Part shown: positions 1-57,578 of the stretch, piece by piece
How positions within the stretch are numbered: the stretch's first letter is position 1
How the letters are laid out: each line of letters opens with the position of its first letter
Assembly: GCF_013870525.1 (NCBI RefSeq)
Contig: NZ_JACBXD010000033.1
Span: forward strand, 1-64,000
Direction of reading: 5' to 3'
Length of the DNA stretch: 64,000 nucleotides
Origin: Amycolatopsis pittospori
Lineage (GTDB): Bacteria; Actinomycetota; Actinomycetes; Mycobacteriales; Pseudonocardiaceae
Notes under the pieces: model-generated
What the model was told of the DNA's origin: nothing
Seen by the model: the letters and a program-made list of their open reading frames with translations, nothing else
The model's database searches: none
Translations under genes and position numbers: made by a program

Positions 1-963
1 CGCTGGACCTACGCCCGGCGCGGCGCCCGTCTCCGCGCGCTCGTCCCCACCCCGGACAGGCTCCTGCTGTTGGCCGTCTACGGCGGTTCCGGCCGTGACC
101 ACCTCACGGTCCTCGACGCGTTCACGGGCGCACCGGTCCAGGACGCACTGATCGAAGAGGTGAGCGGCGCCGACCTCCTCGCCCCGACCGACACGGTGCT
201 CCCCTCGATCACTTACCTGGGGGACGACAACTTCCGCGTCAACGCGCTCGACCTCCGCACCGGAAAAGAACTCTGGACGTGGACCGCGCCTCCGGGCTGC
301 GTCTCCCCCTTCGCGCTGCCCGCGAGCGGCCGCGACGTCGTCCTCGCGCCGCTGTTGTGCCCGGACCGGCTCAGTGTGCTCGGTCTCGACGAACGCACCG
401 GAAAGCAGCGCTGGGAACACAACCTGCCGGTGACGCGACCTTCCGACGAGAAGGCGGACTACTACCTGCACTCCGCCCTCGACGGCGGCACCGTGTCCCT
501 GTCGCTGCGCTATGCCGGCCTGGCCAGTGGCGCCGGCACGGACGTCGTTCTCGACGCCGCCGACGGCGCCGTCGTGTCCACAATGGACCCCAAGGCGTCG
601 AAGCGGATCACCCTCGGCCCCGTGGCCGTCGCGGAACGCACCACGGACGGAAAGGTCACCGAGGCCACCTTGGACGGTGGGGTGGCCGTCGACCTCGCCG
701 CCTGTCCGGACCGGCGCGCACAGGCCACCACACCGACGGCGTATCTGCGCCTGTGCGTCCTTCCCGGCGGCGCGCTGGTGGTACACCGGCAAGAACTCGA
801 TGGCTCACCGGCCTCCACCCTGCCCGTCGACTGGCCGCAGCCCACGGACCCGGCGGGCGCGCTGAATTCCGGCTTCGCCCGCCACGCGCTCCTCCCCGCA
901 CCCGGCGCGCTGGTCGCCGTCCGCGGCGGCGCCACCCCGGTCGTCGGCTACCCCGCCGGCTGA
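1..963 (+). CDS. PQQ-like beta-propeller protein, 3' part only
   Basis: The frame is open from base 1, so the gene begins before the window and only about 320 C-terminal residues are visible. They contain repeated beta-propeller blades with Trp-bearing turns such as GKELWTW and GKQRWEHN, the hallmark of PQQ-like/BamB-like propellers. No catalytic residue or membrane segment is present in this part. Proteins of this class in actinomycetes often have an N-terminal membrane anchor and an extracellular propeller, but that end is missing. The next gene on the same strand starts 88 bases after the stop. The function is unknown; a sensor, a ligand-binding protein or the C-terminus of a larger membrane protein are all possible. 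Confidence 0.7.
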   Translation, partial: RWTYARRGARLRALVPTPDRLLLLAVYGGSGRDHLTVLDAFTGAPVQDALIEEVSGADLLAPTDTVLPSITYLGDDNFRVNALDLRTGKELWTWTAPPGCVSPFALPASGRDVVLAPLLCPDRLSVLGLDERTGKQRWEHNLPVTRPSDEKADYYLHSALDGGTVSLSLRYAGLASGAGTDVVLDAADGAVVSTMDPKASKRITLGPVAVAERTTDGKVTEATLDGGVAVDLAACPDRRAQATTPTAYLRLCVLPGGALVVHRQELDGSPASTLPVDWPQPTDPAGALNSGFARHALLPAPGALVAVRGGATPVVGYPAG

Positions 964-1051
964 GTTCGACGCGATTTCGTGGATTGACAAGGGCGCGAAC
1001 GGGTAACCACCGGGAGTGGACCGATATGTGCGGGGTGAGGAAGGAGTACGG

Positions 1052-1279
1052 ATGGGCGCCCTCATCTCACGCTGGAAGCGAACCGGCAACACGCTCGCTC
1101 TGACCTGGACGCTGATCTCCCTCGGCCTGGCCGCGATGCTCTGGGTATCGGGTTTTCGCGCGTGGCCGGTCTATCTGACCGTCGTGCCGAGTTCGATGGT
1201 GGCCGTTCTGTTGTGGATCGGCGCGGTTCGGACTCGCCGGCGGGAGGCTTCCGCGGGGAAACCCGAACCGGCGGACTGA
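1052..1279 (+). CDS. Small two-helix membrane protein
   Basis: This codes for a 75-residue protein with two hydrophobic segments (about residues 14-34 and 38-55) and a basic tail containing RTRRRE, so it should be an integral membrane protein. I chose the ATG at 1052 because GGAAGGAG lies six bases before it; an in-frame GTG at 1016 has no such site. I do not recognise a family. A strong hairpin begins two bases after the stop and probably ends its transcript. The gene for a SapB-like lanthipeptide converges on it from the other side of that hairpin, but nothing in the sequence links the two functionally. Confidence 0.55.
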   Translation: MGALISRWKRTGNTLALTWTLISLGLAAMLWVSGFRAWPVYLTVVPSSMVAVLLWIGAVRTRRREASAGKPEPAD

Positions 1280-1281
1280 AC

Positions 1282-1315
1282 CGAGCGAAGCCCGGTGTAC
1301 GCCGGGCTTCGCTCG
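1282..1315. terminator. Bidirectional hairpin terminator
   Basis: A perfect 14-bp inverted repeat (CGAGCGAAGCCCGG and its complement) with a 6-base loop lies between two convergent genes, two bases after one stop codon and seven bases beyond the other. Its position suggests it terminates both the small membrane protein gene and the lanthipeptide gene. Confidence 0.7.
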
Positions 1316-1322
1316 CTCTCGG

Positions 1323-1466
1323 TCAGTGACAGGTGAGCAGGCTGATCGAGCTGTGGTGACATCCCAGGAGCAGGCTCGCGTGGGAACGGTGATCCCATTC
1401 CGGTCCGTACCCGGCTTCCTTGAGCTCGACGGGTTCGAGTACCTGCAATTCGAGAACCGCTTCCAT
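1323..1466 (-). CDS. Orphan SapB/AmfS-type class III lanthipeptide precursor
   Basis: This 47-residue peptide fits the SapB/RamS/AmfS family of morphogenetic lanthipeptides. The leader carries LELQVLEPVE, which corresponds to the LLDLQ-x-M-(D/E)-x-P-x-E leader motif recognised by class III synthetases. The core, SHASLLLGC then HHSSISLLTCH, parallels SapB: S28-x2-S31-x4-C36 and S39-x2-S42-x3-C46 are two Ser-x2-Ser-x(2-5)-Cys ring motifs. I chose the ATG at 1466 because GGAGG (1472-1476) lies five bases before it; a longer in-frame reading to 1529 has no site. In Streptomyces the precursor sits in the ram/amf operon with a kinase-cyclase synthetase and ABC exporters. None is found here, so any modification would have to come from a synthetase elsewhere. 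SapB-type peptides act as surfactants for aerial growth. Confidence 0.85.
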   Translation of the reverse strand: MEAVLELQVLEPVELKEAGYGPEWDHRSHASLLLGCHHSSISLLTCH

Positions 1467-1504
1467 GCATTCCTCCGTTGTCGAGTAGATCTTCGCCTCG
1501 GCCG

Positions 1505-1533
1505 ACCATAGGTCTGCTTTTGTTCGCACACAA
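1505..1533 (-). promoter_or_regulatory. Possible promoter of the lanthipeptide gene
   Basis: On the minus strand TTGTGT (1528-1533) and TATGGT (1505-1510) are separated by 17 bp, a plausible -35/-10 pair. It would place the transcript start about 30 bases before the ribosome site of the lanthipeptide gene. This rests on hexamer similarity only. Confidence 0.35.
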
Positions 1534-1555
1534 CGGATTCCTGACCTTCAACCGC

Positions 1556-1574
1556 ATCGATCACTCGATCAGGT
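1556..1574 (-). promoter_or_regulatory. 19-bp upstream element shared with the Roadblock operon
   Basis: The + strand reads ATCGATCACTCGATCAGGT. The same 19 bases with one change (T to C at position 10) occur at 27609-27627, in the same orientation relative to a downstream minus-strand gene and at a similar distance from the start codon (90 versus 78 bases). The element contains a direct repeat of TGATCG on the minus strand. It is a candidate activator or developmental regulator site. Confidence 0.45.
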
Positions 1575-1852
1575 TCTCGTGCCGTTCATACGTCGATTCC
1601 ATCCGATCAAGGATCTTCGTTCACACCGGTTCGCGAATTCGAGCGGTGGGCCGACCGTTTCGGACACCGGAAAAGCGGGCCTGGACACCCGAATGGCGGT
1701 GCGCCCGCGCCGATCGGCGGACGGGGAGATCTCCACGGTGATGACCGGGTTCGCCCGTCGCGCGGGAGACCACCATCACTCGGCCCCACCGGCCACGAAT
1801 CCGACCCGAATGTCCGTATACAGACGCCCGCGACGCTGGCTAGCCTCCGCGG

Positions 1853-3706
1853 GTGAGGATCAAGAGCCTGCTGCTCGCGGTACTTCTGACCGCCGGTGCC
1901 GTGATCGCCCTGCCCCCGCTCACACCGGACCGCGCCGAGGCGGATCCGCCGGCCTGGACGGCACCGCTGTCCACCCGCGGCCGCTACATCGTCGACGCGA
2001 ACGGTGACCGGTTCAAACTGAAGTCCGCCAACTGGCATGGCGCGAGCGGTACGTGGAACGGTTCGGGCGACGTGAACGACCCCGGCAACCACCACGCGGG
2101 CGAGATCGCCCATCAGACTCCACTCGGGCTGGACAGGGCGTCGATCGACACCGTCATCGACGGGCTGGCGCGGCTGGGCCTCAACAGCGTGCGGCTGCCG
2201 TTCTCCAACGCGATGATCCATGACACGAAACCGGTTCCCGACCTGCCCGCCAACCCGGATCTGCGCGGCTCGACCCCGCTGCAGGTCTACGACCGCGTCG
2301 TCGCCAGGCTGACCGCACGCGGGTTCGCGGTGATCCTCAACAATCACACCACGACGTCGCGCTGGTGCTGCGGTCTCGACGGCAACGAACGCTGGAACAC
2401 CGCCCAGAGCGAGCAGCGATGGCAGGACGACTGGCTGTTCATGGCCCGCCGCTACGCCGCGAACAAGCGGGTGGTCGGCGCCGACCTGTACAACGAGGTC
2501 CGCCGCAACGTGCTCGACGACCCCAACTGGGGCTGGGGCAACGACCACGACTGGCAGCGCGCGAGCCGGCAGGTGGCCGATCGCATCCAGACCGAGGCCA
2601 ATCCCGACCTGTTGCTCATCGTCGAGGGCATCAACTGGACGGGCCTGCCCGTGGACGGTCTTCCGCACGGCAGGCCCACGCTCGAGCCCGCCCGCACGCT
2701 GTCGCATACGCTCGTGGACTCCGGAAAACTGGTCTACGCCGCCCATTTCTACGGTTACACCGGTCCGAACCACTCCGGCGCGACCGGCACGGGTGAGACC
2801 CACGACCCGCGCTACCGGGACCTGTCGCCTCAAGAACTGCGAGATGTCCTTTACCGGCAAGCGTTCTTCGTCTCCGCCGAGACCGGCAAGCATTACACCG
2901 CTCCCCTGTGGATCAGCGAGTTCGGCGAGGGCAGGCACACCACCGACACGGCCTCCCGCACCTGGTTCGAGAACTTCGTCGGCTACCTCGCCGAAACCGA
3001 CACCGACTTCGCCTATTGGCCCGCGGTCGGCTTCCACGACGGCGGCGGTGGAAACGGGTGGGCGTTGCTGGAATGGGACGCCGGCGGCCGCCGCATCGAC
3101 GTGCTGGACGGTTCGGACTGGCGTGGTCCCGCGTGGCGGCGGCTGGTGGACGCGCCGTCACGCACCGGCCGGATCCCGGCGGCGGAACGCTGGTCGATGC
3201 TCAACCTCGACCACGCCGACTTCCAGGCCTCCCGTTCGGTCCGGGCGAAAGCGGACTGGAACCCGGGCGCTCGCAAGGGTGCCTGCCCCGACGGGCAGCG
3301 GCTCACCGGACTCGCCCACACCGGCAACCGGGGCCTGTGCACCGGCACGCTCCCGGTCCCGTCCGAATACGTCGCGGTCCGCGACGAGTCCTATGTGGAC
3401 AATGACTGGGCATCCGGCTACACCAAGGTGCAATGCCCACCCGAGCACGCCGCTGTCGGCTACAGCGTCACCGGCGCGGCGTTCTCCGCCCTTCTGTGCG
3501 GCCGATCCGCGACCCCTCTGGGCCGCGCGGGGCGGACGGTCTGGTTCGACCGCGGTGACAACCGGCCGTCCGGTTCCCCCGGCGGCGACTTCGCATCGGG
3601 CCACTACAAGGGCCAATGCGCGCCGGGCGAATACGTCGCCGGCGTCGCCTACACCGGCCGCATCGGCTCGAACCGCACCCCCGACGCGCTTCTCTGCCGC
3701 TCCTGA
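1853..3706 (+). CDS. Secreted GH5 family glycoside hydrolase (cellulase type)
   Basis: A 617-residue secreted enzyme with a Sec signal peptide (residues 1-30, ending RAEA) and a GH5 (beta/alpha)8 domain at about 40-410. Visible active-site motifs are LYNEV (acid/base Glu215) and WISEFGEG (nucleophile Glu356), with LNNHTTT and YAAHFYGY on the substrate side. GH5 enzymes of this type hydrolyse beta-1,4-glucans or related beta-mannans outside the cell. Residues from about 430 hold three Cys-containing repeats of the kind C-x-G-x3-L-G-x-A-x-TG-x(3-9)-LC, probably a binding or accessory module. The GTG at 1853 gives a clean signal peptide. An imperfect 14-bp dyad (GTCCGTATACAGAC, 1812-1825) lies just upstream and could be an operator. 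The next gene codes for another secreted enzyme. Confidence 0.85.
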   Translation: MRIKSLLLAVLLTAGAVIALPPLTPDRAEADPPAWTAPLSTRGRYIVDANGDRFKLKSANWHGASGTWNGSGDVNDPGNHHAGEIAHQTPLGLDRASIDTVIDGLARLGLNSVRLPFSNAMIHDTKPVPDLPANPDLRGSTPLQVYDRVVARLTARGFAVILNNHTTTSRWCCGLDGNERWNTAQSEQRWQDDWLFMARRYAANKRVVGADLYNEVRRNVLDDPNWGWGNDHDWQRASRQVADRIQTEANPDLLLIVEGINWTGLPVDGLPHGRPTLEPARTLSHTLVDSGKLVYAAHFYGYTGPNHSGATGTGETHDPRYRDLSPQELRDVLYRQAFFVSAETGKHYTAPLWISEFGEGRHTTDTASRTWFENFVGYLAETDTDFAYWPAVGFHDGGGGNGWALLEWDAGGRRIDVLDGSDWRGPAWRRLVDAPSRTGRIPAAERWSMLNLDHADFQASRSVRAKADWNPGARKGACPDGQRLTGLAHTGNRGLCTGTLPVPSEYVAVRDESYVDNDWASGYTKVQCPPEHAAVGYSVTGAAFSALLCGRSATPLGRAGRTVWFDRGDNRPSGSPGGDFASGHYKGQCAPGEYVAGVAYTGRIGSNRTPDALLCRS

Positions 3707-3849
3707 AGGACCCGTGTCCGAAAGGACGGCATCCACGGCGCCGCGGGCAGAATTCGGACAGAAGACCGGACAATTCGCGACGCTCTCCGGAGGCCGCCGC
3801 ACACTCTGCGAGCAGTGTGTTTCTTTCCCCCGGCCTTGGAGGATCTCCC

Positions 3850-4974
3850 ATGCGTCGAAGAATCGCCCTCGCTTTCGGCGGCGCCGCCGTCCTTACCGCC
3901 AGTCTCGTCTCCGCAGCTCTCGCTCCCGTCGCACAGGCATCTCCCGGCTTGATCTCCGCCATGCAGCGGGACCTGGGACTCACCGCCGCGCAAGCGGAAA
4001 CCCGGCTCGCACGGGAAATGACCGCGACACGGGTGATGCCGGACGCCCAACGCGCGGCGGGCGCGGCGTTCGGCGGGGCCTGGTTCGACCCGGCGCTGGG
4101 CAAACTCGTCGTCGGCGTGACCGACCCGGCGGCCGCGGACGCCGTCCGGAAGGCCGGTGCCGAGCCGGCCGCCGTCGCGATCAGCGCGGCGAAACTCGAC
4201 GCGGCCAAGGCCGAGATCGACTCTTCGACCAAGTCCCGGCCGGCACCCGCGGCCGTCAGCGGCTGGCGAACCGACGTGCGCAGCGGCAGCGTCGTGATCT
4301 CCGTCCAGCCCGGCGCGCATGGCGCCGACGTCGAAAACTTCCTCGCCAGGGCAAGGAAAGCCGGTCCGGTCACCGTGGTCACCGCGCCGAAGGCCGAGCC
4401 GTTCGCGGCGGGCACCGTCGGCGGCGATCCCTACTACATCAACGGGAACACCCGCTGCTCGATCGGATTCTCCGTCCACGGCGGATTCGTCAGCGCCGGT
4501 CACTGCGGCGGCAACGGCAGCTCCGTCGTCGGCTGGGACGGCTCGGCGATGGGCAACTTCGCCGGATCCTCCTTCCCCGGCAACGACTACGCGTTCATCC
4601 GCATCGGCAACGGCTGGTGGACCGCGCCGGTCGTCCTCGGCTGGGGCACGGTCAGCGACGCGCTCGTGCGGGGATCGTGGGTCGCGCCCGTCGGCACCTC
4701 GGTGTGCCGGTCGGGTTCGACGACGCACTGGCACTGCGGAACCGTGCTGGGGCACAACGAAACCGTCAACTACTCGCAGGGCGCGGTGCATCAGATGACC
4801 CGCACCAACGTCTGCGCGGAACCCGGCGACTCCGGTGGTTCCTTCATCACCGGCGACCAGGCGCAGGGCGTCACTTCCGGCGGCTGGGGCAACTGCGGTT
4901 CCGGCGGCGAAACGTGGTTCCAGCCGGTGAACGAGATCCTGCAGACCTACGGCCTGTCCCTCGTCACGGCGTAA
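3850..4974 (+). CDS. Secreted alpha-lytic/streptogrisin-type serine protease (S1E)
   Basis: This 374-residue preproprotease has a signal peptide (1-30, ending AQA), an alpha-lytic-type prodomain (about 31-185) and a chymotrypsin-fold catalytic domain from about 190. The triad is visible as His218 (SAGHCGG), Asp246 (GNDYAFIRI) and Ser328 (EPGDSGGSF). Cys pairs around 203/219, 286/296 and 322/349 fit the conserved disulfides. In this family the prodomain acts as a folding chaperone and is then cleaved off. The ATG at 3850 follows GGAGG at 3838-3842. A 23-bp-arm palindrome shortly after the stop may serve as its terminator. It lies downstream of the GH5 gene, 143 bases away, and both probably feed extracellular polymer degradation. 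Confidence 0.92.
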   Translation: MRRRIALAFGGAAVLTASLVSAALAPVAQASPGLISAMQRDLGLTAAQAETRLAREMTATRVMPDAQRAAGAAFGGAWFDPALGKLVVGVTDPAAADAVRKAGAEPAAVAISAAKLDAAKAEIDSSTKSRPAPAAVSGWRTDVRSGSVVISVQPGAHGADVENFLARARKAGPVTVVTAPKAEPFAAGTVGGDPYYINGNTRCSIGFSVHGGFVSAGHCGGNGSSVVGWDGSAMGNFAGSSFPGNDYAFIRIGNGWWTAPVVLGWGTVSDALVRGSWVAPVGTSVCRSGSTTHWHCGTVLGHNETVNYSQGAVHQMTRTNVCAEPGDSGGSFITGDQAQGVTSGGWGNCGSGGETWFQPVNEILQTYGLSLVTA

Positions 4975-5004
4975 CCGCCGGGCGGCTGACCGCTTCCACC
5001 ACAA

Positions 5005-5057
5005 GACGTGAAGGCCTCCTTCCCTACCTTGAGCGTAGGGAAGGAGGCCTTCACGTC
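5005..5057. repeat. Palindromic intergenic repeat (GAAGGCCTCCTTCCCTAC type)
   Basis: Perfect 23-bp arms (5005-5027 and 5035-5057) flank a 7-base loop. The same arm core, GTGAAGGCCTCCTTCCCTAC, recurs at 29631-29687. It lies 31 bases after the protease stop, so it may act as a terminator, and directly abuts a truncated regulator gene. Confidence 0.8.
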
Positions 5058-5065
5058 ACTGGGAA

Positions 5066-5242
5066 GAGGACCAGCCGATCGTGCGCTATCTCGCCGAGAT
5101 GATGACCGACACCGGCGTCCCGGCGACGATGGCCAGGGTGCTGGCATTCCTGTTCACCAGCGAAACCGGCGGCGGCACCACCGCCGAACTCGTGGCACGG
5201 CTGGGGGTCAGCCCGGCGCCGTCCTGACCAAGGCGCTCAGCG
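5066..5242 (+). pseudogene. Remnant of a MarR/GbsR-type regulator
   Basis: The frame from 5066 reads EEDQPIVRYLAEMM, then TGVPATMARVLAFLF, TTAELVARLGVSPA, and stops at 5225-5227. This is the N-terminal winged-helix region of a GbsR/MarR-type DNA-binding protein. After GVSPA one base appears to be missing: shifting frame gives A-V-L-T-K-A-L-S, where family members continue with the recognition helix (AAVSKA...). The rest of the gene is gone and the fragment runs into the 3' end of an opposing gene. Upstream it abuts the palindrome at 5005-5057. I regard it as a decayed, truncated gene; a real 48-residue product from the GTG at 5081 is much less likely. Confidence 0.55.
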
Positions 5243-5473
5243 CGCCGCGCCGCCGACGTCCGCGCCGGCTTCGCCGAACGCGAGCCACAGCGCACCGGCC
5301 ACGCCCAGTATCAGGCCGGCCGCCGTCCACCACGACCACCAGCTGAAGAACGCGACGACGGGCCCGACGGCGAGCAGGACACCCCCGCCGACCGCCGCGG
5401 TCTCCCCCTTCCATGCGGACGCGGACCGTTCGACGACGTCCGGGGACGGCGGGGAATCGGATCGGACGGGCAT
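5237..5473 (-). CDS. Small membrane protein, unknown function
   Basis: A 78-residue protein with two adjacent hydrophobic segments (about residues 26-43 and 46-66; FFSWWSWWTAAGLILG), so probably a hairpin in the membrane. The ATG at 5473 is preferred because GGAGG lies six bases before it; an in-frame GTG 18 bases upstream lacks a site. I do not recognise a family. It overlaps the end of the decayed regulator fragment on the opposite strand. Confidence 0.5.
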   Translation of the reverse strand: MPVRSDSPPSPDVVERSASAWKGETAAVGGGVLLAVGPVVAFFSWWSWWTAAGLILGVAGALWLAFGEAGADVGGAAR

Positions 5474-5487
5474 CGCGGACCTCCGGC

Positions 5488-5640
5488 TCACTCGGCCAAC
5501 TGGCGAAACGCGTCCTGATACCCCGTCCAGGCCCCCTTCACACCTGACCAGGATCCGCTGCGGCCCCAGGCCGTCCCGGCGACCAGCCGCAGACCCATCC
5601 CGGGTGCGGCGGCCTCGCTGAGATCACTGTGCTGCCGAAA
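5488..5640 (-). pseudogene. Possible C-terminal gene remnant
   Basis: The minus-strand frame ending at the TGA in 5488-5490 reads SEAAAPGMGLRLVAGTAWG and then GAWTGYQDAFRQLAE. It looks like the natural end of a protein, but it has no start codon, no ribosome site and no recognisable upstream part. I read the 200 bases between the two flanking minus-strand genes as decayed coding sequence. The family is unknown. Confidence 0.25.
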
Positions 5641-5689
5641 CCTTCGAGGGCAAGAAGAAGCTCCGCGTCCCGATCCGCTGGTCGGGGTT

Positions 5690-6301
5690 TCAGCGGCGCA
5701 CCTTGAACTTCAAGTGCAGCACCCGGTCGCCCTGGATGACGACGTGCGGATCCTCCAGCAGATGCTGCCCGTCGATGTCACCGAAGAAACGTTTGCCCGA
5801 ACCGAAGACCACCGGCACGACGTCCATCGCGACCTCGTCCACGAGACCGGCCGCGAGGATCTGGCCGCCCACCTCGCCGGCGTTCACGGCGATGGTCCGG
5901 TCCCCGGCGAGTTCCTGGGCTTTGGCGATCGCGGCCGTCACGTCGCCGACGAAATGGTAGGACGCCTCGGGGTGCCAGCCTTCGGGCTTCGGCCGGTGTG
6001 ACACCACGACGACGTGGTCACCCGCGGGCGGCTTCCCCTCCCAGCCGTTCACCAGATCGAAGAGGGTGCGGCCCATGATGATCGTGCCGATCGAAGCCCA
6101 CATCGGCCGGACGTAGGCGGCCGACGTCTTCGAGACCCTGATGCCGCCGCCGCTTCCGGAGTGGTCGAAGTCCTCCGACGTGTCTCCGGTAAGCGGGATG
6201 TCCCCGCTGAAGTACCACTCGTGGAGCGAGCCGACATCGTCGTTCTTGTCGGCGATGAAGCCGTCCACCGACACCACATCGTGCATGATCACTGTGCCCA
6301 C
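5690..6301 (-). CDS. RibD C-terminal/dihydrofolate reductase-like protein
   Basis: A 203-residue member of the RibD-C/DHFR-like fold. It begins GTVIMHDVVSVDGFIA, the usual first strand with a catalytic-site Asp, and carries IIMGRTLFD (the nucleotide-binding GRxT/xFD turn), NAGEVGGQILAAGLVDE and a C-terminal VVFGSGKRFF, all typical. Proteins of this family reduce pterin- or riboflavin-type substrates with NADPH, but most stand-alone copies have no known substrate. The GTG at 6301 is preceded by GAGGAG. It lies 72 bases downstream of an AraC regulator gene on the same strand. A second family member occurs at 41763-42365 in a sigma-factor operon. Confidence 0.85.
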   Translation of the reverse strand: MGTVIMHDVVSVDGFIADKNDDVGSLHEWYFSGDIPLTGDTSEDFDHSGSGGGIRVSKTSAAYVRPMWASIGTIIMGRTLFDLVNGWEGKPPAGDHVVVVSHRPKPEGWHPEASYHFVGDVTAAIAKAQELAGDRTIAVNAGEVGGQILAAGLVDEVAMDVVPVVFGSGKRFFGDIDGQHLLEDPHVVIQGDRVLHLKFKVRR

Positions 6302-6373
6302 GGGGTTCTCCTCGGGTCTCTTGCGCGTTCGCTCCGATCTTGGCGCCCGGCGGACGGCGAGGCTTGTAAAAAA

Positions 6374-7192
6374 TCACTCGTCGGGGATCGGAGGGAACTC
6401 CGACTCGGCGGGATGCCGGCGCCGCAGATCCAGGAATTCCGTCGGGGTACAGCCGGTGAAGTCCTTGAACTCCTTGCCGAAGTGGGCCTGGTCGAAGTAG
6501 CCCGCCTCCGCCCAGTCGAACGGACGCCGGGTGTCGGCGGACAGGATCAGCCGCGCGAAGCGGTAGATCCGAGCCACCCGTTTCGGCGTGACCCCGACGT
6601 GGGACTTGAACTGCGCGGCCAGGTGGTTGCCGCTCACCCCGGCGGCGTCGGTCAGCGCTCCCACCGGGACCACGCCGTGGGAGGTCTCCAGCCGTCCGCC
6701 CGTGCGCAGGACCAGACCGAGGCCACGCGACGGCGCCTCGGCGAGTCGCGAGCGCAGCTCGGCCTCCACCACCCGCAGGGTCTCGGCGGGCGAGTTCAGG
6801 TCGCCGATCCGGTTGCGGATCCGGTCCAGGGACCGCCGCCAGACGGCGTCGACGGGCACCCAGCGATCCCGCAGCTCAGTCGCCGGCATGTCGACGAACG
6901 GCGACATCCCCCAAGGTTTGAAGTGCACCCCGACGAGCCGCACCCGCGCGGGATACTCGAAGAGGAAACGCCTGGTCCAGAGCCCCATGAACCATCCGTC
7001 GGCGAAGACCACCGGCGGCACCGACGGATCGGAATCCCACAGGCGGACGGGGTCGCCCAGGTTGAGGAACAGATGCGCCGACGGCATCGGCGGGACGTTC
7101 ATCCGGCGATGCGTCGGCACCCCGGTCAGGCAGTAGACGTCGTCGATGAAGCGGTCGAGCGGCGGGGCGGGCACCTGACCGACGTACTCCAT
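6374..7192 (-). CDS. AraC family transcriptional regulator
   Basis: 272 residues. The N-terminal 160 residues form a cupin-like sensing domain of the type found in DUF6597 regulators (HLFLNLGDPVRLW, VGVHFKPWGMSPFVDMPA). The C-terminal 100 residues are two helix-turn-helix motifs, ending in the AraC signature GYFDQAHFGKEFKDFTGCTP. It should be a DNA-binding activator or repressor. The gene starts four bases after the stop of the START-like gene, so the two are almost certainly one transcript and the regulator probably controls that unit. Confidence 0.85.
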   Translation of the reverse strand: MEYVGQVPAPPLDRFIDDVYCLTGVPTHRRMNVPPMPSAHLFLNLGDPVRLWDSDPSVPPVVFADGWFMGLWTRRFLFEYPARVRLVGVHFKPWGMSPFVDMPATELRDRWVPVDAVWRRSLDRIRNRIGDLNSPAETLRVVEAELRSRLAEAPSRGLGLVLRTGGRLETSHGVVPVGALTDAAGVSGNHLAAQFKSHVGVTPKRVARIYRFARLILSADTRRPFDWAEAGYFDQAHFGKEFKDFTGCTPTEFLDLRRRHPAESEFPPIPDE

Positions 7193-49927: not shown

Positions 49928-50053
49928 ATCGGCATTCGACGGTTGACGCCGCGCCGGTTCGTTGGTCTCCTGTTCTCGGCGCCGTTCGGCCCGGATCCCG
50001 GGATTCAATCCTTTGAGGACATTCACATTTCTCGACCGCAAGGAGGCGGCGAA

Positions 50054-51007
50054 ATGACTTTGCGTCCTTCACGATTTCTTTCGATTCTGGCCTTGACCGT
50101 AATCACTTCCGCGACCGTGGCGACCACCGGCGCGAACGCGGAGATCTCCGCACTGGCCGCGCCGATCGGCTGGGCGAGCCAGAACGGCGGCACCACCGGC
50201 GGCGGTGGCGCGTCGCCGGTCACGGTGACCTCGGCGTCCGCGCTGAGCTCGGCGATCAGCGGGACCACCGCGGCGGTGATCCGGGTCGCCGGCACCATTT
50301 CCTGCTCCGGCATGCTCAAAGTGGGGTCGAACAAGTCCATCCTCGGCAATTCCGGCGCGACGATCGACGGCTGCGGCCTGACCTTGAGCGGCTCCAAGGA
50401 CGTGGTGATCCAGAACCTGTCCTTCCGGGACTGGGACGACGACGCGATCAACATCGAAAAGGCCTCGACCAACGTGGTCGTCGACCACAACACCTTCACC
50501 AACGGGTACGACGGCGCCGTCGACATCAAACGTGCCTCGGATTTCATCACGGTTTCCTGGAACCGCGTGTACGGACACAACAAATCGATGCTTCTCGGAC
50601 ACAGTGACGACAACGGGAGCCAGGATCGCGGCAAATTGCGGGTGACCTATCACCACAATTACTTCGACGGTTCCGGGACGCGGCATCCCCGCGTGCGCTT
50701 CGCCAATCCCGTGCACGTGTTCAACAACTACTACCGGGACAACGAGTACGGCGTCGCGTCCACCTACAGCGGCGGCGTACTGGTCGAGAACAACCACTTC
50801 GACAACGTCGACGAGCCGACGCTGGTCGGCTACGCCGGTTCGCCGGCGGGCACCCTGGTGCAACGCGGCAACCTCTTCACCGGATCCGGTTCACCGCAGG
50901 CGAGCGGGTCGGTGGCGACCATCCCGTACTCGTACAGCCTCGAGTCCGCGAGCGCGGTGAAGGGCAGCGTGACCGCCGGAGCCGGGGCGGGCAAGATCCA
51001 GCCCTGA
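50054..51007 (+). CDS. Secreted pectate lyase, PL1 family
   Basis: 317 residues with a signal peptide (1-29, ending ANA) and a right-handed parallel beta-helix of the PL1 type. The Ca-site Asp residues lie in FRDWDDDAINIEKASTNVVVDHNTF and YDGAVDIKRASDFITVSWN, and the catalytic Arg in YFDGSGTRHPRVRFANP. The enzyme cleaves polygalacturonate by beta-elimination. AGGAGG lies seven bases before the ATG. It complements the divergent PL10-like lyase. A 25-bp-arm palindrome after the stop may terminate transcription. Confidence 0.92.
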   Translation: MTLRPSRFLSILALTVITSATVATTGANAEISALAAPIGWASQNGGTTGGGGASPVTVTSASALSSAISGTTAAVIRVAGTISCSGMLKVGSNKSILGNSGATIDGCGLTLSGSKDVVIQNLSFRDWDDDAINIEKASTNVVVDHNTFTNGYDGAVDIKRASDFITVSWNRVYGHNKSMLLGHSDDNGSQDRGKLRVTYHHNYFDGSGTRHPRVRFANPVHVFNNYYRDNEYGVASTYSGGVLVENNHFDNVDEPTLVGYAGSPAGTLVQRGNLFTGSGSPQASGSVATIPYSYSLESASAVKGSVTAGAGAGKIQP

Positions 51008-51572: not shown

Positions 51573-54500
51573 ATGGCGAATCCGCTGGTCGCTGAACGTC
51601 AGGACTCCACAAAGGGCTTCTCGGGCGTTCCGTTGCTGGAGTCGGCGAACGACCTCAAAGAAGGCATCGAGAAGGGCGACTGGGCCGCGGTCGCGATGGG
51701 CGCCGTCGGGACGGCTCTCGACGCGCTGTCGATGGCGATGGATCCTTTCGGGTCGATCCTCGCCGCGGGGGTGGGGTGGTTGCTGGAGCACGTCGGCCCG
51801 CTCTCCGACGCACTCGACGCCCTGACCGGCGACGCCGATCAGATCAAGGCACAGTCCGAGACCTGGGCCAACGCCGCCAAGGAACTCGGCGCCATCGGCA
51901 CGGATCTGTCCGGCATGGTCGAGGCCGACCTGCAGTCGTGGACCGGGGACGCCGCCGACCGGTACCGCGAGCGGACCAAGGACATGGTCGTTCTCCTGAC
52001 GGCCGCGCAGAAGGGCTGCGAAGGAGCCTCCAGCGGTGTCAAGACCGCGGGCGAGGTCGTCGCCGCCGTCCGTACCCTGGTCCGCGACATCATCGCCGAA
52101 CTCGTCGGCCATCTCATCAGCTGGGCGTTGCAGGTCCTGTTCACCCTCGGCATCGGCCTGACCTGGGTGGTGCCGCAGGTCGTGACCGCGGTCGCCAAGA
52201 CCGCCTCGAAGATCGCCGACCTCACCACCAAGCTCGTCAAGGCACTCAAGGCCCTGATGCCGCTGCTCAAGAGGGCCGACACGCTCTTCGACGACGCCGC
52301 CAAGGCCATGCGCAAGATCCAGGGCGGCAAGGTGGACGCCCCGCCCCCGGTCAAGACCAAGGACGGCGGTGGCGACCGCGGGCTCGACGGCAAGAAGGAC
52401 AAGGACGACGAAGGCACGTCCGCCTCCGGCGCCGACAACAACGGCAAGCACGACGGCGGCAACGACAAGGGTGGCACCGGCAACAACACCAACGACAAGA
52501 ACAACACCAAGAACGACACCGACCAGACGAACACCAGCGGCACCGGCGGCGGCACCCGCGACCGGGGCGGCAGCGGCAACGACTCCACCAAGAAGGACGG
52601 AAACGGCGACCGCTCGACGTCGTCGGATTCCAAGAACTACTGCGGCGACCCGGTCGACATCGCGACCGGCGAGGTCGTCATGACGCAGGTCGACGTGACC
52701 TTGCGCGGTGACGCGGCGGACCTGGAGATCTCCCGCACGCATCTGTCGTCCTACACCGCGGGCCGCTGGTTCGGTCCATCATGGACGTCCACTTTGGACC
52801 AGCGGCTGGAGTTCGCAGGCGACCGGATCCGGTTCTATGCCGAGGACGGGATGGTGCTGGACTATCCGGTTCCCGCCAACGAACCCGTGCTGCCGGCGCA
52901 GGGTCCGCGCCACCGGTTGCGCCGCGCGGCGGACGGCTACCGGCTGTCGATCGGCGATCGTGAGCTGCACTTCGCCGGCGCCACCGGCGTCCTGCCGCTC
53001 ACGGCCATCGAGCAGGGCGGCGGCCGCACCGAGATCGCCTACGCCGTCGACGGAACGCCCGCGAAACTCCGCCGCGACGACGGCGTCGAGCTCACGATCG
53101 GCACCGCGAACGGGCGGATCGTCGCGCTCGGGGCTCCGGAACAGCCACCGCTGGTGCAGTTCTCGTACAACCGGCATGGCCAGCTGAGCACCGTCATCGA
53201 CTTCGCGGGCCGCCCCATGGCCCTCGACTACGACTTCAGCCACCGGCTCGTCGGCTGGCAGGACCGCACCGGTACCTGGTACCGCTATGTCTACGACGAC
53301 GCCGGCCGCTGTGTCCGCGCCGTGGGGGCGAACGGTTTCTACAACGCGACCTTCGTCTACGAGCCCGGCACGACCCGGCACACCGACGCTGTCGGCCACA
53401 CCTGGATCTACCGCCTCAACGACGCCAAGCAGCTGATCGAACGCATCGACCCGCTGGGCAACTCCCGGCGCTACGCGTGGAACCGGCGCGACGAACTACT
53501 GTCCCAAGTGGACGAACTCGGCCGGGAAACCGGTTACGAGTACGACGATGACGGTGAGCTGGTGGCCGTTGATCGCCCCGGGGACGCCAAGGTGCGGGTG
53601 GCACCGGCCGCCGACGGCGAGGTCCGGCTGTGGGCGGGCGAAGGCGAGAACCGGGTCGAGCGAGTGGTCCCCGAGTTCGACCCGGCCACCACGCTCGTCG
53701 GCACCGGGCCGCGGCTGGACATCCCCGACGCGCCCGACCCGCTCGACGACGACCCGGTGACGGACCGGACGGCTCGCCCCGGCGATCGCGACCTGTTCGG
53801 CCGTCCTCGCCTCGTGCACACGGCTTCCGGTGGCTCGGCGACGCTCGGTTGGACGGCCGACGGCCACCGTGCCTGGCGGCTCGGGCCGCACGGCGATCGC
53901 GAAACGTGGGTGTACGACGCGGAAGGCCAGGTCGTCGAGCACCGCGACGCGACGGGCGCGGCGCGGCGCCGCAAGTACGGCCCGTTCGGTCTCGTGACGG
54001 AGGAGACCGACGCCGCCGGCGGGCGCACGCTCTTCACCTACGACGGCGAACTGCGGCTCACCTCGGTGACCAACCCGAACGGCTTCACCTGGCAGTACGT
54101 CCACGACGCCGCGGGCAGGCTCGCCGAGGAGATCGACTACGACGGTCGCAGGATCACCTATGCCTACGACGTGGCGGGCCAGCTGCGCCGCATGACCAAC
54201 GGCCTGGGTCAGGCGACCGAGTACGACTACGACCTTCAGGGCAACGTCGTGGCACGGCGCACCCTCGACGACATCACGCTGTACGAATACGACGCGCTCG
54301 GCAGGCTGACCGTCGCCGAGAACGCCGAGTCCCGGGTCGAGATCCGCCGCGACGGTTCCGACACGATCATCGCCGACACGATCAACGGGCTCGGCGTGTG
54401 CTGGCGCCAGGACGGCGAGACGCTCGTCCGCCGGACATCGTCCGGTGTGGACAGTGAGTGGCGCTTCACCGAGTCGAACCTGCCGCGGTCGCTGCGGATC

Positions 54501-56129
54501 GCCGGCCACGAAGTCGCGTTCGCCTACGACGACGCCGAACGCGAGATCACGCGCAGCGTCGACGGCGCCGTGATCCTCCGGCGGCGGTTCGACGCGGAAG
54601 ACCGGCTCGCCGAAGAGGAGATCGCGGGCGTCGGCCCGCGCACCTACGGCTACCGCCCGGACGGCAGGCTCGCCGCCGTCGACGACGCGATCCGGCCTTG
54701 GCTGCTCTCCTTCGACAGCGCCGGCCGGGTCAGCGAGGCGCGCGGGCCGGCCGGTGTCGAACGGTTCACCCGGGACGCGGCGGGCAACATCACCTCGGGC
54801 GCGACAGGACCGCGGACCTACGAACGCAACCAGCTCGCCTCTGTCGGTGCGACCCAGTACGGCGCCGACGAGCAGGGCAGGGTCACCGGTCTGCGCCACG
54901 GCGACCGGTCCTGTGTCTACGAATGGGACCACCTCGACAGGCTGCGTTCCGCGCGCACGCCCGACGGCGCGCTCTGGACCTACCACTACGACCCGATCGG
55001 GCGGCGGTTCGCCAAACGCCGCTGGACGACCGGCCCCGACGGCGAACCCGAGCTCACCGTCGACGTCCGCTTCCTGTGGAGCGAGATGAACCTCGTCGAG
55101 CGGATGGAATACCACCCCGCCGACGGGTCCTACCGGTTCCTCACGTGGGAGCGGTACGACGACGATCGCCCCGTCGTGCAGATCGAGCACACCGGCGACG
55201 TCGGCAAGGCCCTGTTCCGTGCGGTGATCACTTCGCCCGCGGGGACACCGACCGAACTGCTCGACGAGCACGGCACGCTGGTCTGGCAGGACCGCAGCAG
55301 TCTCTGGGGCGCGCCGCTGCCCGGCGCCGACGTCGCGGCGATGCCGCTGGCGTTCCCCGGCCAGCACCGCGACGAGGAGACCGGGCTGCACTACAACGTC
55401 TTCCGGTACTACGACCCCCAGACCACGCGCTACCTCAGCCAGGACCCGCTCGGGCTCGCCGCCGCGCCCAACCCCGTCGGCTACGTCGAGCAGCCCCTGC
55501 TCGACGCCGACCCGCTCGGCCTCACCGGCCGCTGCGGCAGGAGCGGGCCGGGCAGGCAGACGCGGCCCCAGCCGGTGGGCACCAGGGGACAACAGCCACC
55601 GCGAAGGAGCCCGAGGGGGCACCAATACCGCGTCGACAAGATGTCCAAAGAGGAGTTCGACAAGTTCAAGCCGAAACTCGACGACATGCTGAAGGCCGAC
55701 AAGCACTTCTTCTGGTCCGGCGGCACCATGAAGCGCAAACGCGGTGAAGCCGACGAGTACCTTGGTTCGGTCGAAGAGAAGGCCACCAAGATCGCGAAGC
55801 AGAACGGTGGCAACACGCTCGAAGGGACTCTCCGGGACAACGGTGTGCGGATGCCCGGTTGGATCAACAAGCCCGACGACCCGAACAAGCCGCTCGTCCA
55901 AGCGAAATGGGATTACGTCTCCGAAACCTTCGCGAAGAACTCCAATCAGGACACTCACGTCGTCTTCCCCAGCTGGCCGGGCAAGGGGCACGACATCTAC
56001 CCGCACCGCCGGGAGGACAACGTCTTCAAGGTGACCGAGTATCCGAGGCTCGAGGCGAGCGGTATCGACCACATCACCAAGCACAACGCCGAAACCGGTC
56101 ACACGCGCCCTTACCGGCACACCAAGTGA
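51573..56129 (+). CDS. WXG100-Rhs polymorphic toxin with CD38-like NADase C-terminus
   Basis: 1518 residues. Residues 80-150 are a WXG100-like helical hairpin (SWTGDAADRYRERTKDM), implying export by a type VII system. A hydrophobic segment lies at about 182-206 and an Asn/Asp/Gly-rich linker at 255-352. DUF6531 starts at CGDPVDIATGEVVM (357), then about 900 residues of YD/Rhs repeats end in RYYDPQTTRYLSQDPLGL. The last 200 residues are the variable toxin. They hold FFWSGG (Trp1381), NTLEGTL (Glu1417), KWDYVSETFA (Trp1446) and VTEYPRLEAS (Glu1489), in the order and spacing of the FWSG, TLEDT, W-x2-VSRRFA and final catalytic Glu of CD38. NAD hydrolysis or cyclisation is the predicted activity. 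The ATG at 51573 is the only good start. No immunity gene follows within 75 bases. Confidence 0.85.
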   Translation: MANPLVAERQDSTKGFSGVPLLESANDLKEGIEKGDWAAVAMGAVGTALDALSMAMDPFGSILAAGVGWLLEHVGPLSDALDALTGDADQIKAQSETWANAAKELGAIGTDLSGMVEADLQSWTGDAADRYRERTKDMVVLLTAAQKGCEGASSGVKTAGEVVAAVRTLVRDIIAELVGHLISWALQVLFTLGIGLTWVVPQVVTAVAKTASKIADLTTKLVKALKALMPLLKRADTLFDDAAKAMRKIQGGKVDAPPPVKTKDGGGDRGLDGKKDKDDEGTSASGADNNGKHDGGNDKGGTGNNTNDKNNTKNDTDQTNTSGTGGGTRDRGGSGNDSTKKDGNGDRSTSSDSKNYCGDPVDIATGEVVMTQVDVTLRGDAADLEISRTHLSSYTAGRWFGPSWTSTLDQRLEFAGDRIRFYAEDGMVLDYPVPANEPVLPAQGPRHRLRRAADGYRLSIGDRELHFAGATGVLPLTAIEQGGGRTEIAYAVDGTPAKLRRDDGVELTIGTANGRIVALGAPEQPPLVQFSYNRHGQLSTVIDFAGRPMALDYDFSHRLVGWQDRTGTWYRYVYDDAGRCVRAVGANGFYNATFVYEPGTTRHTDAVGHTWIYRLNDAKQLIERIDPLGNSRRYAWNRRDELLSQVDELGRETGYEYDDDGELVAVDRPGDAKVRVAPAADGEVRLWAGEGENRVERVVPEFDPATTLVGTGPRLDIPDAPDPLDDDPVTDRTARPGDRDLFGRPRLVHTASGGSATLGWTADGHRAWRLGPHGDRETWVYDAEGQVVEHRDATGAARRRKYGPFGLVTEETDAAGGRTLFTYDGELRLTSVTNPNGFTWQYVHDAAGRLAEEIDYDGRRITYAYDVAGQLRRMTNGLGQATEYDYDLQGNVVARRTLDDITLYEYDALGRLTVAENAESRVEIRRDGSDTIIADTINGLGVCWRQDGETLVRRTSSGVDSEWRFTESNLPRSLRIAGHEVAFAYDDAEREITRSVDGAVILRRRFDAEDRLAEEEIAGVGPRTYGYRPDGRLAAVDDAIRPWLLSFDSAGRVSEARGPAGVERFTRDAAGNITSGATGPRTYERNQLASVGATQYGADEQGRVTGLRHGDRSCVYEWDHLDRLRSARTPDGALWTYHYDPIGRRFAKRRWTTGPDGEPELTVDVRFLWSEMNLVERMEYHPADGSYRFLTWERYDDDRPVVQIEHTGDVGKALFRAVITSPAGTPTELLDEHGTLVWQDRSSLWGAPLPGADVAAMPLAFPGQHRDEETGLHYNVFRYYDPQTTRYLSQDPLGLAAAPNPVGYVEQPLLDADPLGLTGRCGRSGPGRQTRPQPVGTRGQQPPRRSPRGHQYRVDKMSKEEFDKFKPKLDDMLKADKHFFWSGGTMKRKRGEADEYLGSVEEKATKIAKQNGGNTLEGTLRDNGVRMPGWINKPDDPNKPLVQAKWDYVSETFAKNSNQDTHVVFPSWPGKGHDIYPHRREDNVFKVTEYPRLEASGIDHITKHNAETGHTRPYRHTK

Positions 56130-56204
56130 TCGTTCCGGGCTGCCGCGCCACGCGGGGGCCGACTCGCCCCGGTCCGTCACCTTCGACCTCTTCCCCGCGA
56201 GAGG

Positions 56205-57578
56205 TCAGGTCGCCGGACGCCGGGATACGAGTATCGCGAGGCCGACGAATACGGCCACACCGATCGTCGCGACCACGGCGAGCCCGGTGGTGAAACCGTG
56301 CCCGCGCTGGACGAACGTACCGACGCTGCCGAGGACCGCCACCCCGAGTGCCAGCCCGAACTCCACGCTGGTCTCCGACAACGCCGATGCCGCACCGGCC
56401 CGGTCGGGTGGCGCCGCGCCGACCACGACGTCCGTGCTCAGTGCCATCACCGGCCCGAGGCCGAGGTAGATCAGCACGAGACCGGTGACCAGTGGGGCGA
56501 TCCCCTGTTCGTCCGGGGTCGAGGCCAGCACGCCGAAACCGAGAGCCGACACCACGAGTGACGACGCGAGCAGGCGGTGGACCGGGATCCGGCGGGCCAG
56601 TGAGGGCGCCGCGACCGACGTGAGGATCATCGCCACCGCGGAGGGCACCAGCCACATCCCGGCCTCGATCGGGGACAACCCGGCCTCCTGCTGAAGGTAG
56701 AGCGCCGCGAACAGGTAGATCCCGGCGACGCAGGCGAGCGCGGCGAGCAGCACCAGCAGCGCGTTCCGGAACGGCCGGGCGGCGAACAACCGGAGGTCGA
56801 TCAGCGGCGGGCTCAGCAGCCGCTGCCGTCGCAGGAACACGGTCCCGGCGGCCACGCCTAGCACCAGGGCGATCCCACCCGGCAGTACCGATCCGCCCTC
56901 CGCGAGGTGCTTGATGCCGTAGACGACCGGCAGCACCGTCGCCAGGGAAAGGGCCACGCTCGCCAGGTCCAGCTTCCCGGGGTCGGGGTCGCGGTGTTCC
57001 GGCAGCAGGATCGGCCCGGTGATCAGCAGCAGGACCATCACCGGGACGGCGAGCAGGAACACGGAGCCCCACCAGAACCATTCGAGCAGCAGTCCGCCCG
57101 CCACCGGGCCGAGCGCCACTCCGGCGGACAGGCCCGCGGACCACAGTCCGATCGCGACACCGCGCCGGCGCGGATCCCGGAACATGTTCCCGATCAGCGC
57201 GAGGGTGGACGGCATGAGGGTGGCACCGGCGAGGCCGAGCAGTCCACGGGCGACGATGAGCAGTTCGGCCGAGGGCGCGTAGGCCGCCAGCACCGATACG
57301 ACCAGGAAGGCGGCCGCTCCGATCAGCAGCAGACGGCGCCGGCCCACGCGGTCGCCCAGCGTGCCCATGGTGACGAGGAAACCGGCGACCAGAAAGCCGT
57401 AGGCGTCGGAGATCCACAGCAACTGGCCGGGGGTCGGGGCCAGGTCGGCGGCGAGACTCGGCAGCGCCAGGTAGAGCACCGTGGCGTCCATGGACAACAG
57501 CGCGGTCGGGAGCACGAGTACGGCGAGCCCGAGCCATTCGCGTGGCCCGGCGGAGATTTCGAGTTGTCGATCGGACAT
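56205..57578 (-). CDS. MFS drug exporter, DHA2 (14-helix) type
   Basis: 457 residues with about 14 hydrophobic segments. Motif A is GTLGDRVGRRRLLLIG, motif B ARGLLGLAGATLMPSTLALI and motif C GLWSAGLSAGVALGPVAGGLLL, which marks proton-driven drug exporters of the EmrB/QacA type. N-terminal DATVLYLALPSLAADL is also typical. The MerR gene is divergent, and the MFS promoter has the long 19-bp spacer used by MerR activators, so export is probably induced by the drug that MerR senses. Confidence 0.92.
   Translation of the reverse strand: MSDRQLEISAGPREWLGLAVLVLPTALLSMDATVLYLALPSLAADLAPTPGQLLWISDAYGFLVAGFLVTMGTLGDRVGRRRLLLIGAAAFLVVSVLAAYAPSAELLIVARGLLGLAGATLMPSTLALIGNMFRDPRRRGVAIGLWSAGLSAGVALGPVAGGLLLEWFWWGSVFLLAVPVMVLLLITGPILLPEHRDPDPGKLDLASVALSLATVLPVVYGIKHLAEGGSVLPGGIALVLGVAAGTVFLRRQRLLSPPLIDLRLFAARPFRNALLVLLAALACVAGIYLFAALYLQQEAGLSPIEAGMWLVPSAVAMILTSVAAPSLARRIPVHRLLASSLVVSALGFGVLASTPDEQGIAPLVTGLVLIYLGLGPVMALSTDVVVGAAPPDRAGAASALSETSVEFGLALGVAVLGSVGTFVQRGHGFTTGLAVVATIGVAVFVGLAILVSRRPAT

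What the first reader, a model, noticed from the sequence alone, without database searches (positions are those of the whole stretch)
51573..56129. WXG100-Rhs toxin with CD38-like C-terminus and no immunity gene
The C-terminal 140 residues contain FWSG, TLE-x-T, W-x2-VS-x2-FA and a final Glu in the order found in CD38 and ADP-ribosyl cyclases, an NAD-consuming fold also seen in a few contact-dependent toxins. The N-terminus has a WXG100 hairpin, implying type VII export. Toxins of this class nearly always have an immunity gene directly downstream; here only 75 bases separate it from an opposing MFS gene. The immunity protein may be missing, located elsewhere or unnecessary.
Basis: partly seen in the sequence, partly recalled or inferred. 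Interest (0 to 1): 0.72.

Follow-up and report, generated by a model that had tools for sequence, protein, structure and literature searches.

The report
CD38-like Rhs toxin without linked immunity
A soil actinomycete gene encodes a large, probably exported toxin whose tip resembles the human NAD-destroying enzyme CD38; this toxin family is already known, but here and in its relatives no antidote gene travels beside it, so the target may not be close kin.

Summary
[quoted passage not shown] A profile of 14 relatives hits crystal structures of the toxins Tac1 (7e-15) and ARCtox (1.4e-14); all 39 PDB hits are ARC-family. A low-confidence model still aligns to both toxins (Z 11.2, 9.6) and CD38 (5.9). 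Four catalytic residues are invariant; the retained E1417 predicts NAD(P)+ hydrolysis. The family is known: predicted 2012, two members proven 2025.

Absence of a linked immunity gene is real and systematic. In 43 ARC loci the first downstream gene falls into 30 blast clusters, the largest shared by 7 loci. Imm74 and Imm63, reported Tox-ARC partners, were found in 0 of 80 same-genus genomes. Other C-termini on this chassis differ: some have an adjacent immunity-like gene (Imm35, DUF6881, SseB-like), while VirD5-like and RIP-like ones do not. An excess of toxins over immunity proteins in actinobacteria was published in 2012. Best reading: an exported NAD(P)+-depleting toxin against non-kin, possibly eukaryotes; export and target are inferred.

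The parts
51573..56129 (+). WXG100-Rhs-ARC protein, 1518 aa; ATG after a purine-rich stretch (GAGGAAGAAG) a few bases upstream
   Evidence: the MANPL start is conserved in 7 of 7 aligned species
51573..52322 (+). N-terminal trafficking region (about residues 1-250): WXG100-like (WTG at 123) followed by a hydrophobic stretch (about 178-208)
   Evidence: PF25547 29.4 bits over residues 86-204; hydropathy and motif positions; a match at E up to 0.001 in 80 of 80 same-genus genomes
52635..55523 (+). DUF6531 plus RHS/YD repeats plus Rhs-associated core: predicted cocoon
   Evidence: PF20148 6.5e-20, PF05593 5.4e-48; TIGR03696 1.7e-18 over residues 1245-1317
55443..55523 (+). DPLGL-(17 aa)-DPLGL: Rhs-type autoprocessing motif (function recalled from Rhs/TcC proteins, not from a call)
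   Evidence: start-to-start spacing of 22 in 36 of 48 chassis sequences examined
55602..56126 (+). [quoted passage not shown] catalytic W1381 (55713), E1417 (55821), W1446 (55908), E1489 (56037)
   Evidence: residue roles from PMC12356396 and PMC12605009 (sections read)
56130..56204 (.). 75-bp gap with no room for an immunity gene; no promoter- or terminator-like site found in 55900-56500
56205..57578 (-). Opposing MFS transporter; its blast cluster is next to the toxin in no other of the 43 ARC loci
   Evidence: PF07690 1.1e-47; neighbour clusters (L024 = window)
49943..51007 (+). Upstream pectate lyase, 565 bp away; other genes lie upstream in the six named relatives (compared by eye)
   Evidence: PF00544 2.7e-34

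Best explanation
An Rhs-type polymorphic toxin whose C-terminal cartridge is an ADP-ribosyl cyclase/NAD(P)+ hydrolase with a complete active site. Shown here: architecture, ARC homology and fold, all four catalytic residues, an ESX-type secretion locus in the same genome, and no neighbouring gene common to 43 relatives. Inferred: export by type VII (ESX) secretion through the WXG100-like N-terminus; storage of the toxin inside the Rhs shell and self-cleavage at the DPxGL motif; in the target, NAD(P)+ is cyclised and hydrolysed to linear ADP-ribose(-phosphate), so the cell loses NAD(P)+. The producer is protected by encapsulation and export rather than by a linked immunity protein, which fits a weapon against non-kin, possibly eukaryotic competitors or predators.
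For: ARC. W/E/W/E invariant in 14 of 14 aligned relatives. Alanine at the equivalents sharply lowers Tac1 hydrolysis (E573A abolishes it) and abolishes ARCtox toxicity in E. coli (PMC12356396, PMC12605009). The Glu that drives cADPR hydrolysis in Tac1 (E516) is kept as E1417; the cADPR-releasing Nac1 has Ala there. Chassis in 80 of 80 and ARC (decayed copies and fragments included) in 35 of 80 same-genus genomes. ESX locus. No downstream gene type shared by more than 7 of 43 loci; no upstream gene shared by more than 3 of 7. The amidohydrolase-like gene that flanks the toxin in several relatives lies on another contig here. Imm74 and Imm63 in 0 of 80 genomes; the Imm74 search rings once in 396 phylum genomes. 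An attenuated ARCtox also inhibits yeast. Precedent: Sec-exported alarmone synthetases of Streptomyces, harmful in the cytoplasm, lack immunity genes and scatter over loci (PMC12691689, passages).
Against: No activity or export data. No Y-x3-[DE] export motif in residues 1-300. The AF2 model is weak (mean pLDDT 60.6; much of the C-terminal lobe under 50). The tested ARC toxins (Tac1, ARCtox, LisARC) are antibacterial with linked immunity. In the same alarmone-synthetase paper the T7SS-linked Streptomyces group does have adjacent putative immunity genes. Endonuclease-like and unnamed C-termini on this chassis also lack a consistent adjacent gene, so its absence does not single out eukaryote-directed cartridges. 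An immunity protein of an unknown family elsewhere in the genome was not excluded.
Confidence: 0.6

Rival explanations
1. Classical antibacterial polymorphic toxin whose immunity protein is encoded at an unlinked place in the genome.
For: The three ARC toxins tested in the papers read are antibacterial and neutralised by immunity proteins; predicted folds of ARC immunity proteins differ between systems (PMC12356396, PMC12605009). Immunity-like genes do sit next to some cartridges on this chassis: Imm35, DUF6881, SseB-like, DUF7691-like.
Against: Known ARC partners Imm74 and Imm63 in 0 of 80 genomes; for Imm63 nothing rang anywhere, so that negative is weak, and the 2012 table does not list actinobacteria for Imm74. 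43 ARC loci in 30 contexts share no partner. Unlinked immunity is hard to keep with a gene that changes places (inference).
Confidence: 0.25
2. Secreted ARC enzyme that works outside cells on released NAD(P)+, as proposed for the non-toxic Nac1 of Actinophytocola oryzae, and not as an injected toxin.
For: Nac1 is a bacterial ARC without immunity gene, predicted to be secreted (PMC12356396). Sec-exported alarmone synthetases show the same gene pattern.
Against: Nac1 has Ala in place of the hydrolase Glu; here E1417 is kept in 14 of 14. The domain sits on an Rhs shell, and some other C-termini on that shell match toxin families. No signal-peptide predictor was run.
Confidence: 0.15
3. Degenerate or silent toxin that lost its immunity gene because it is no longer harmful.
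For: Shortened ARC copies exist: L030 (G014, 250-aa frame) and partial matches in short frames in G067 and G220.
Against: Full frame, invariant catalytic residues and ARC identity of 70-92% between the window and six named relatives.
Confidence: 0.05

Closest known systems
Tac1 (Streptococcus parasanguinis, T7SSb LXG; PDB 9OUF; PMC12356396)
   Same: ARC fold (Z 11.2), W/E/W/E active site, T7SS context
   Different: LXG trafficking domain with Lap partners and adjacent Imm74-type immunity; here an Rhs chassis and no adjacent immunity
ARCtox PANA_2924 (Pantoea ananatis, T6SS PAAR; PDB 9RO8; PMC12605009)
   Same: ARC domain (Z 9.6), the same four catalytic residues; inhibits E. coli and, as an attenuated variant, yeast
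   Different: PAAR/T6SS delivery and adjacent immunity PANA_2923
Tox-ARC of Zhang et al. 2012 (PMC3482391)
   Same: Same domain class, already predicted in actinobacteria and other phyla with T5SS, T6SS and T7SS (LXG, WXG) links
   Different: Described as typically coupled with Imm74 (also Imm63) and hence intraspecific; neither was found in 80 same-genus genomes
Nac1 (Actinophytocola oryzae; PMC12356396)
   Same: Bacterial ARC without immunity gene (that the organism is of the same family as Amycolatopsis is recalled)
   Different: Hydrolase Glu replaced by Ala, predicted Sec signal peptide, releases cADPR
CD38 (metazoa)
   Same: Fold (Z up to 5.9) and catalytic residues
   Different: Larger animal ectoenzymes; 14-19% identity in the structural alignments listed

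Membership tests
Bacterial ADP-ribosyl cyclase toxins (Tox-ARC/Tac1/ARCtox) | Sequence homology to Tac1/ARCtox | tested here: met
   Profile E 7e-15 and 1.4e-14; single sequence 1.3e-5 and 4.2e-7
Bacterial ADP-ribosyl cyclase toxins (Tox-ARC/Tac1/ARCtox) | ARC fold | tested here: met
   Foldseek 2e-5 (9ouf) and 1.1e-4 (9ro8), next other structure 0.34; Z 11.2/9.6, CD38 5.9; model confidence low in the C-terminal lobe
Bacterial ADP-ribosyl cyclase toxins (Tox-ARC/Tac1/ARCtox) | Two Trp and two Glu of the active site | tested here: met
   W1381, E1417, W1446, E1489; invariant in 14 of 14
Bacterial ADP-ribosyl cyclase toxins (Tox-ARC/Tac1/ARCtox) | NAD(P)+ hydrolysis and growth inhibition | not testable with these tools
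   needs an assay
Bacterial ADP-ribosyl cyclase toxins (Tox-ARC/Tac1/ARCtox) | Cognate immunity gene adjacent (typical, not strictly defining) | tested here: not met
   Window and 43 loci, window included; Imm74 0 of 80, Imm63 0 of 80
Pfam PF02267 (metazoan-type ADP-ribosyl cyclase) | Score over the gathering cut-off | tested here: not met
   11.2 bits, cut-off 25; 12 of 14 relatives match at E up to 1, best E 0.003
Rhs polymorphic toxins | RHS repeats, Rhs-associated core, DPxGL pair, variable C-terminus on a shared chassis | tested here: met
   12 C-terminal clusters besides ARC among 36 paralogues
Type VII (ESX) substrate | WXG100-type hairpin | tested here: met
   WXG100_2 29.4 bits over cut-off 27; the classic WXG100 model stays under its cut-off
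Type VII (ESX) substrate | Y-x3-[DE] export motif | tested here: not met
   none in residues 1-300
Type VII (ESX) substrate | Machinery in the genome; export shown | tested here: inconclusive
   EccB, EccC, EccD, mycosin and two WXG100 proteins on C17, EccB and EccD on C131; export itself not testable here

The most novel reading that the evidence does not exclude
Amycolatopsis uses one Rhs chassis, probably type VII-exported, as a dual-use platform: cartridges with a linked immunity gene (ART, papain-fold deamidase) serve fights among bacteria, whereas cartridges without one (CD38-like ARC, VirD5-like, RIP-like) are aimed at eukaryotic cells such as fungi or amoebae.
Probability: 0.3. Interest if true: 0.65.

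Novelty: new member of a known kind. Interest (0 to 1): 0.38.

Why it matters
It extends the ARC-toxin family characterised in 2025 to an actinomycete Rhs/WXG100 chassis and shows a lineage in which ARC cartridges consistently lack a linked immunity partner, against the 2012 generalisation that Tox-ARC is typically coupled with Imm74. If the cartridges without immunity are eukaryote-directed, a secretion platform of soil actinomycetes would deliver CD38-like, VirD5-like and RIP-like activities, which can be tested in laboratory yeast and amoebae.

Tried and rejected
Imm74 and Imm63 in the genus: no hit. Imm74 is found once in 396 phylum genomes, so that search works; Imm63 rang nowhere, so that negative is weak. 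A nuclear-localisation-like motif in the C-termini: 33 seen against 23 expected by shuffling, in 48 partly redundant sequences; not pursued. Closeness test (first downstream gene on the same strand, gap up to 100, up to 250 aa): 4 of 43 ARC loci against 10 of 36 other cartridges, Fisher p 0.04. The loci are not independent, so it is weak. The 4 ARC cases fall into four different clusters; of the 10 others only 5 look like immunity genes, the other five are GNAT-like (3), glycosylase-like and kinase-like neighbours named by eye. ARC beyond the family: 1 of 396 phylum genomes, the window's own. One search was run without turning minus-strand loci and was replaced. Downstream gene calls come from my own codon-usage script trained on seven window ORFs.

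Rows dropped before counts. The 43 loci are the 30 that had loci plus 13. From I left out seven repeats (L091-L097), L100 (repeat of L042), and fragments, second pieces or domains inside a longer frame (L106, L108, L114-L119). L030, a shortened copy, is counted. Eight of the 38 rows had no locus; the places in G051, G003 and G027 among them entered through. The other-cartridge sample is 36 chassis genes: the own-genome L120 plus 35 plus-strand places picked by me from the capped list, so it is not random. Five further ARC regions fetched (L160-L164) were not counted among the 43.

Full report
Observation. The window lies in an 8.4-Mb genome of 192 contigs. The six named relatives of the C-terminal domain found in genome contigs are all Amycolatopsis, at 70-92% identity (which reaches close relatives only); the genus name of the window and of the unnamed 'same genus' genomes rests on that. 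The ORF 51573-56129 encodes 1518 residues, and the 75-bp gap to an opposing MFS gene is as described.

Anatomy. The N-terminus matches Pfam WXG100_2 (29.4 bits, cut-off 27), with sub-threshold matches to T7SS_signal and classic WXG100, and carries a hydrophobic stretch near residues 178-208. DUF6531, RHS repeats and the Rhs-associated core follow. The pair DPLGL/DPLGL has the spacing of 22 found in 36 of 48 chassis sequences; its self-cleavage role is recalled from Rhs and TcC proteins. The C-terminal 175 residues hit the PDB entries 9ro8 and 9ouf.

The domain is an ADP-ribosyl cyclase. A profile of 14 relatives gives 7e-15 for Tac1 and 1.4e-14 for Pantoea ARCtox; the other 37 of 39 hits up to E 10 are weak (0.046 and above) but are all CD38 or other ADP-ribosyl cyclases (5bnf is labelled 'Uncharacterized protein' there and porcine CD38). 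Pfam's metazoan model reaches only 11 bits, under its cut-off. The AF2 model, from seven sequences, has mean pLDDT 60.6 and a poor C-terminal lobe. Even so Foldseek puts 9ouf and both chains of 9ro8 first (2e-5 to 1.6e-4) with the next hit at 0.34, and VIA-align gives Z 11.2, 9.6 and, for CD38, up to 5.9, a level at which unrelated folds also appear (one at 5.5). W1381, E1417, W1446 and E1489 align with the active-site residues of Tac1 and ARCtox and are invariant in 14 of 14. In Tac1 only the last Glu was indispensable, and most weakened variants still stopped E. coli growth; in ARCtox each of the four was needed for toxicity. E1417 matches Tac1 E516, whose loss lets cADPR escape, and the cADPR-releasing Nac1 has Ala there; I therefore predict a hydrolase.

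Distribution. The chassis N-terminus is found in 80 of 80 same-genus genomes and ARC in 35 of 80, fragments included; ARC is in 27 of 297 genomes drawn from the family, 13 of them in the genus, and in 1 of 396 drawn from the phylum, the window's own. The genome has an ESX locus on C17 (EccB, EccC, EccD, mycosin, two WXG100 proteins) and EccB and EccD on C131; EccE was not sought.

Immunity. In 43 ARC loci the first downstream gene falls into 30 blast clusters; the largest is shared by 7 loci, and it lies on the opposite strand in 24 of 43. The commonest, an amidohydrolase-like gene (named by eye), follows the toxin in those 7, lies upstream of it in A. orientalis, and in this genome sits on contig C189 at 94% identity, where one search lists no chassis match. 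Upstream, three of seven loci share a permease-like gene (by eye) and the others differ. So the toxin gene appears to change places without a partner. Imm74 and Imm63, the partners reported for Tox-ARC (PMC3482391, passages), are found in 0 of 80 genomes. The 2012 table names actinobacteria for Imm63 but not for Imm74, so the lack of Imm74 alone is unsurprising.

Control on the same chassis. I compared 36 paralogues with other C-termini. Five have a plausible adjacent immunity gene: Gln_amidase with Imm35 (L147), Tox-ART-HYD1 with DUF6881 (L143), two weakly ART-like C-termini with SseB-like genes homologous to each other (L144, L149), and L128, unnamed, with a DUF7691-like gene under its cut-off. 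Others lack a consistent one: a VirD5-like cluster of 11 (six scanned: three over the PF04730 cut-off, two under it, L120 without a match; best 9.3e-14), two RIP-like members (PF00161, E about 0.001, under the cut-off), an endonuclease-like cluster of 8 (one scanned, weak) and several unnamed ones. A locus flanked by the same GNAT-like gene (by eye; one blast cluster) carries three different C-termini (L126, L128, L130/L135), and only L128 has an extra small gene between. Absence of linked immunity is thus common on this chassis and seems to depend on the cartridge; it is not a loss at one locus. The endonuclease-like and unnamed clusters show that it is not confined to cartridges with eukaryotic relatives.

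What is known. Zhang et al. 2012 (PMC3482391: passages; section 46) predicted Tox-ARC, linked it to T5SS, T6SS and T7SS, called it typically coupled with Imm74 and therefore intraspecific, and reported an excess of toxins over immunity proteins in slow-growing multicellular bacteria, mainly actinobacteria and deltaproteobacteria, read as weapons against other species. Colautti 2025 (PMC12356396: abstract and four sections) and Martinkus 2025 (PMC12605009: abstract and four sections) proved NAD(P)+ hydrolysis; the latter lists RHS, LXG and EsxA architectures and actinomycete examples (Gordonia, Nonomuraea, Streptomyces) and shows toxicity to yeast. PMC12691689 (passages) gives the precedent of Sec-exported enzymes that harm the cytoplasm but lack immunity genes, while its T7SS-linked group does have putative ones. 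I saw no paper on Amycolatopsis Rhs-ARC or on VirD5-like Rhs cartridges among the rows listed; those lists were capped, the library is open-access only, and PMC9990079, which names both Amycolatopsis and polymorphic toxins, was seen in a listing only.

Verdict. The fold, family and missing neighbour are right. The family and the imbalance are already published, so this is a new member of a known kind. The open question is the target of the cartridges that travel without immunity.

Noticed in passing
L130, L135, L132, L142, L141 (Rhs paralogues of same-genus genomes): C-termini matching Agrobacterium VirD5 (PF04730, best 9.3e-14; three over and two under the cut-off) on the same Rhs chassis, without a consistent adjacent immunity gene.
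   Followed up: partly
L155, L158: C-termini with weak matches to ribosome-inactivating proteins (PF00161, E about 0.001, under the cut-off); the two nearest downstream genes are on the opposite strand.
   Followed up: partly
L126, L128, L130, L135: A locus flanked by the same GNAT-like gene carries three different Rhs C-termini; one has an extra 158-aa gene (DUF7691-like) directly downstream.
   Followed up: partly
L120 (G000:C111), 853-6658: Second full-length Rhs paralogue of this genome, preceded by a WXG100-like and a YbaB-like gene (named by eye) and ending in ...DAMDVD; its C-terminus clusters with the VirD5-like group but has no Pfam match itself.
   Followed up: partly
L030 (G014); partial matches in G067, G220: Shortened ARC copies or fragments in short frames.
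   Followed up: no
L108 (G214) and L115 (G263): ARC-like matches inside giant frames of 6742 and 4476 aa, apparently not at the C-terminus.
   Followed up: no
window 49943-51007: Pectate lyase (PF00544 2.7e-34) upstream of the toxin gene.
   Followed up: no
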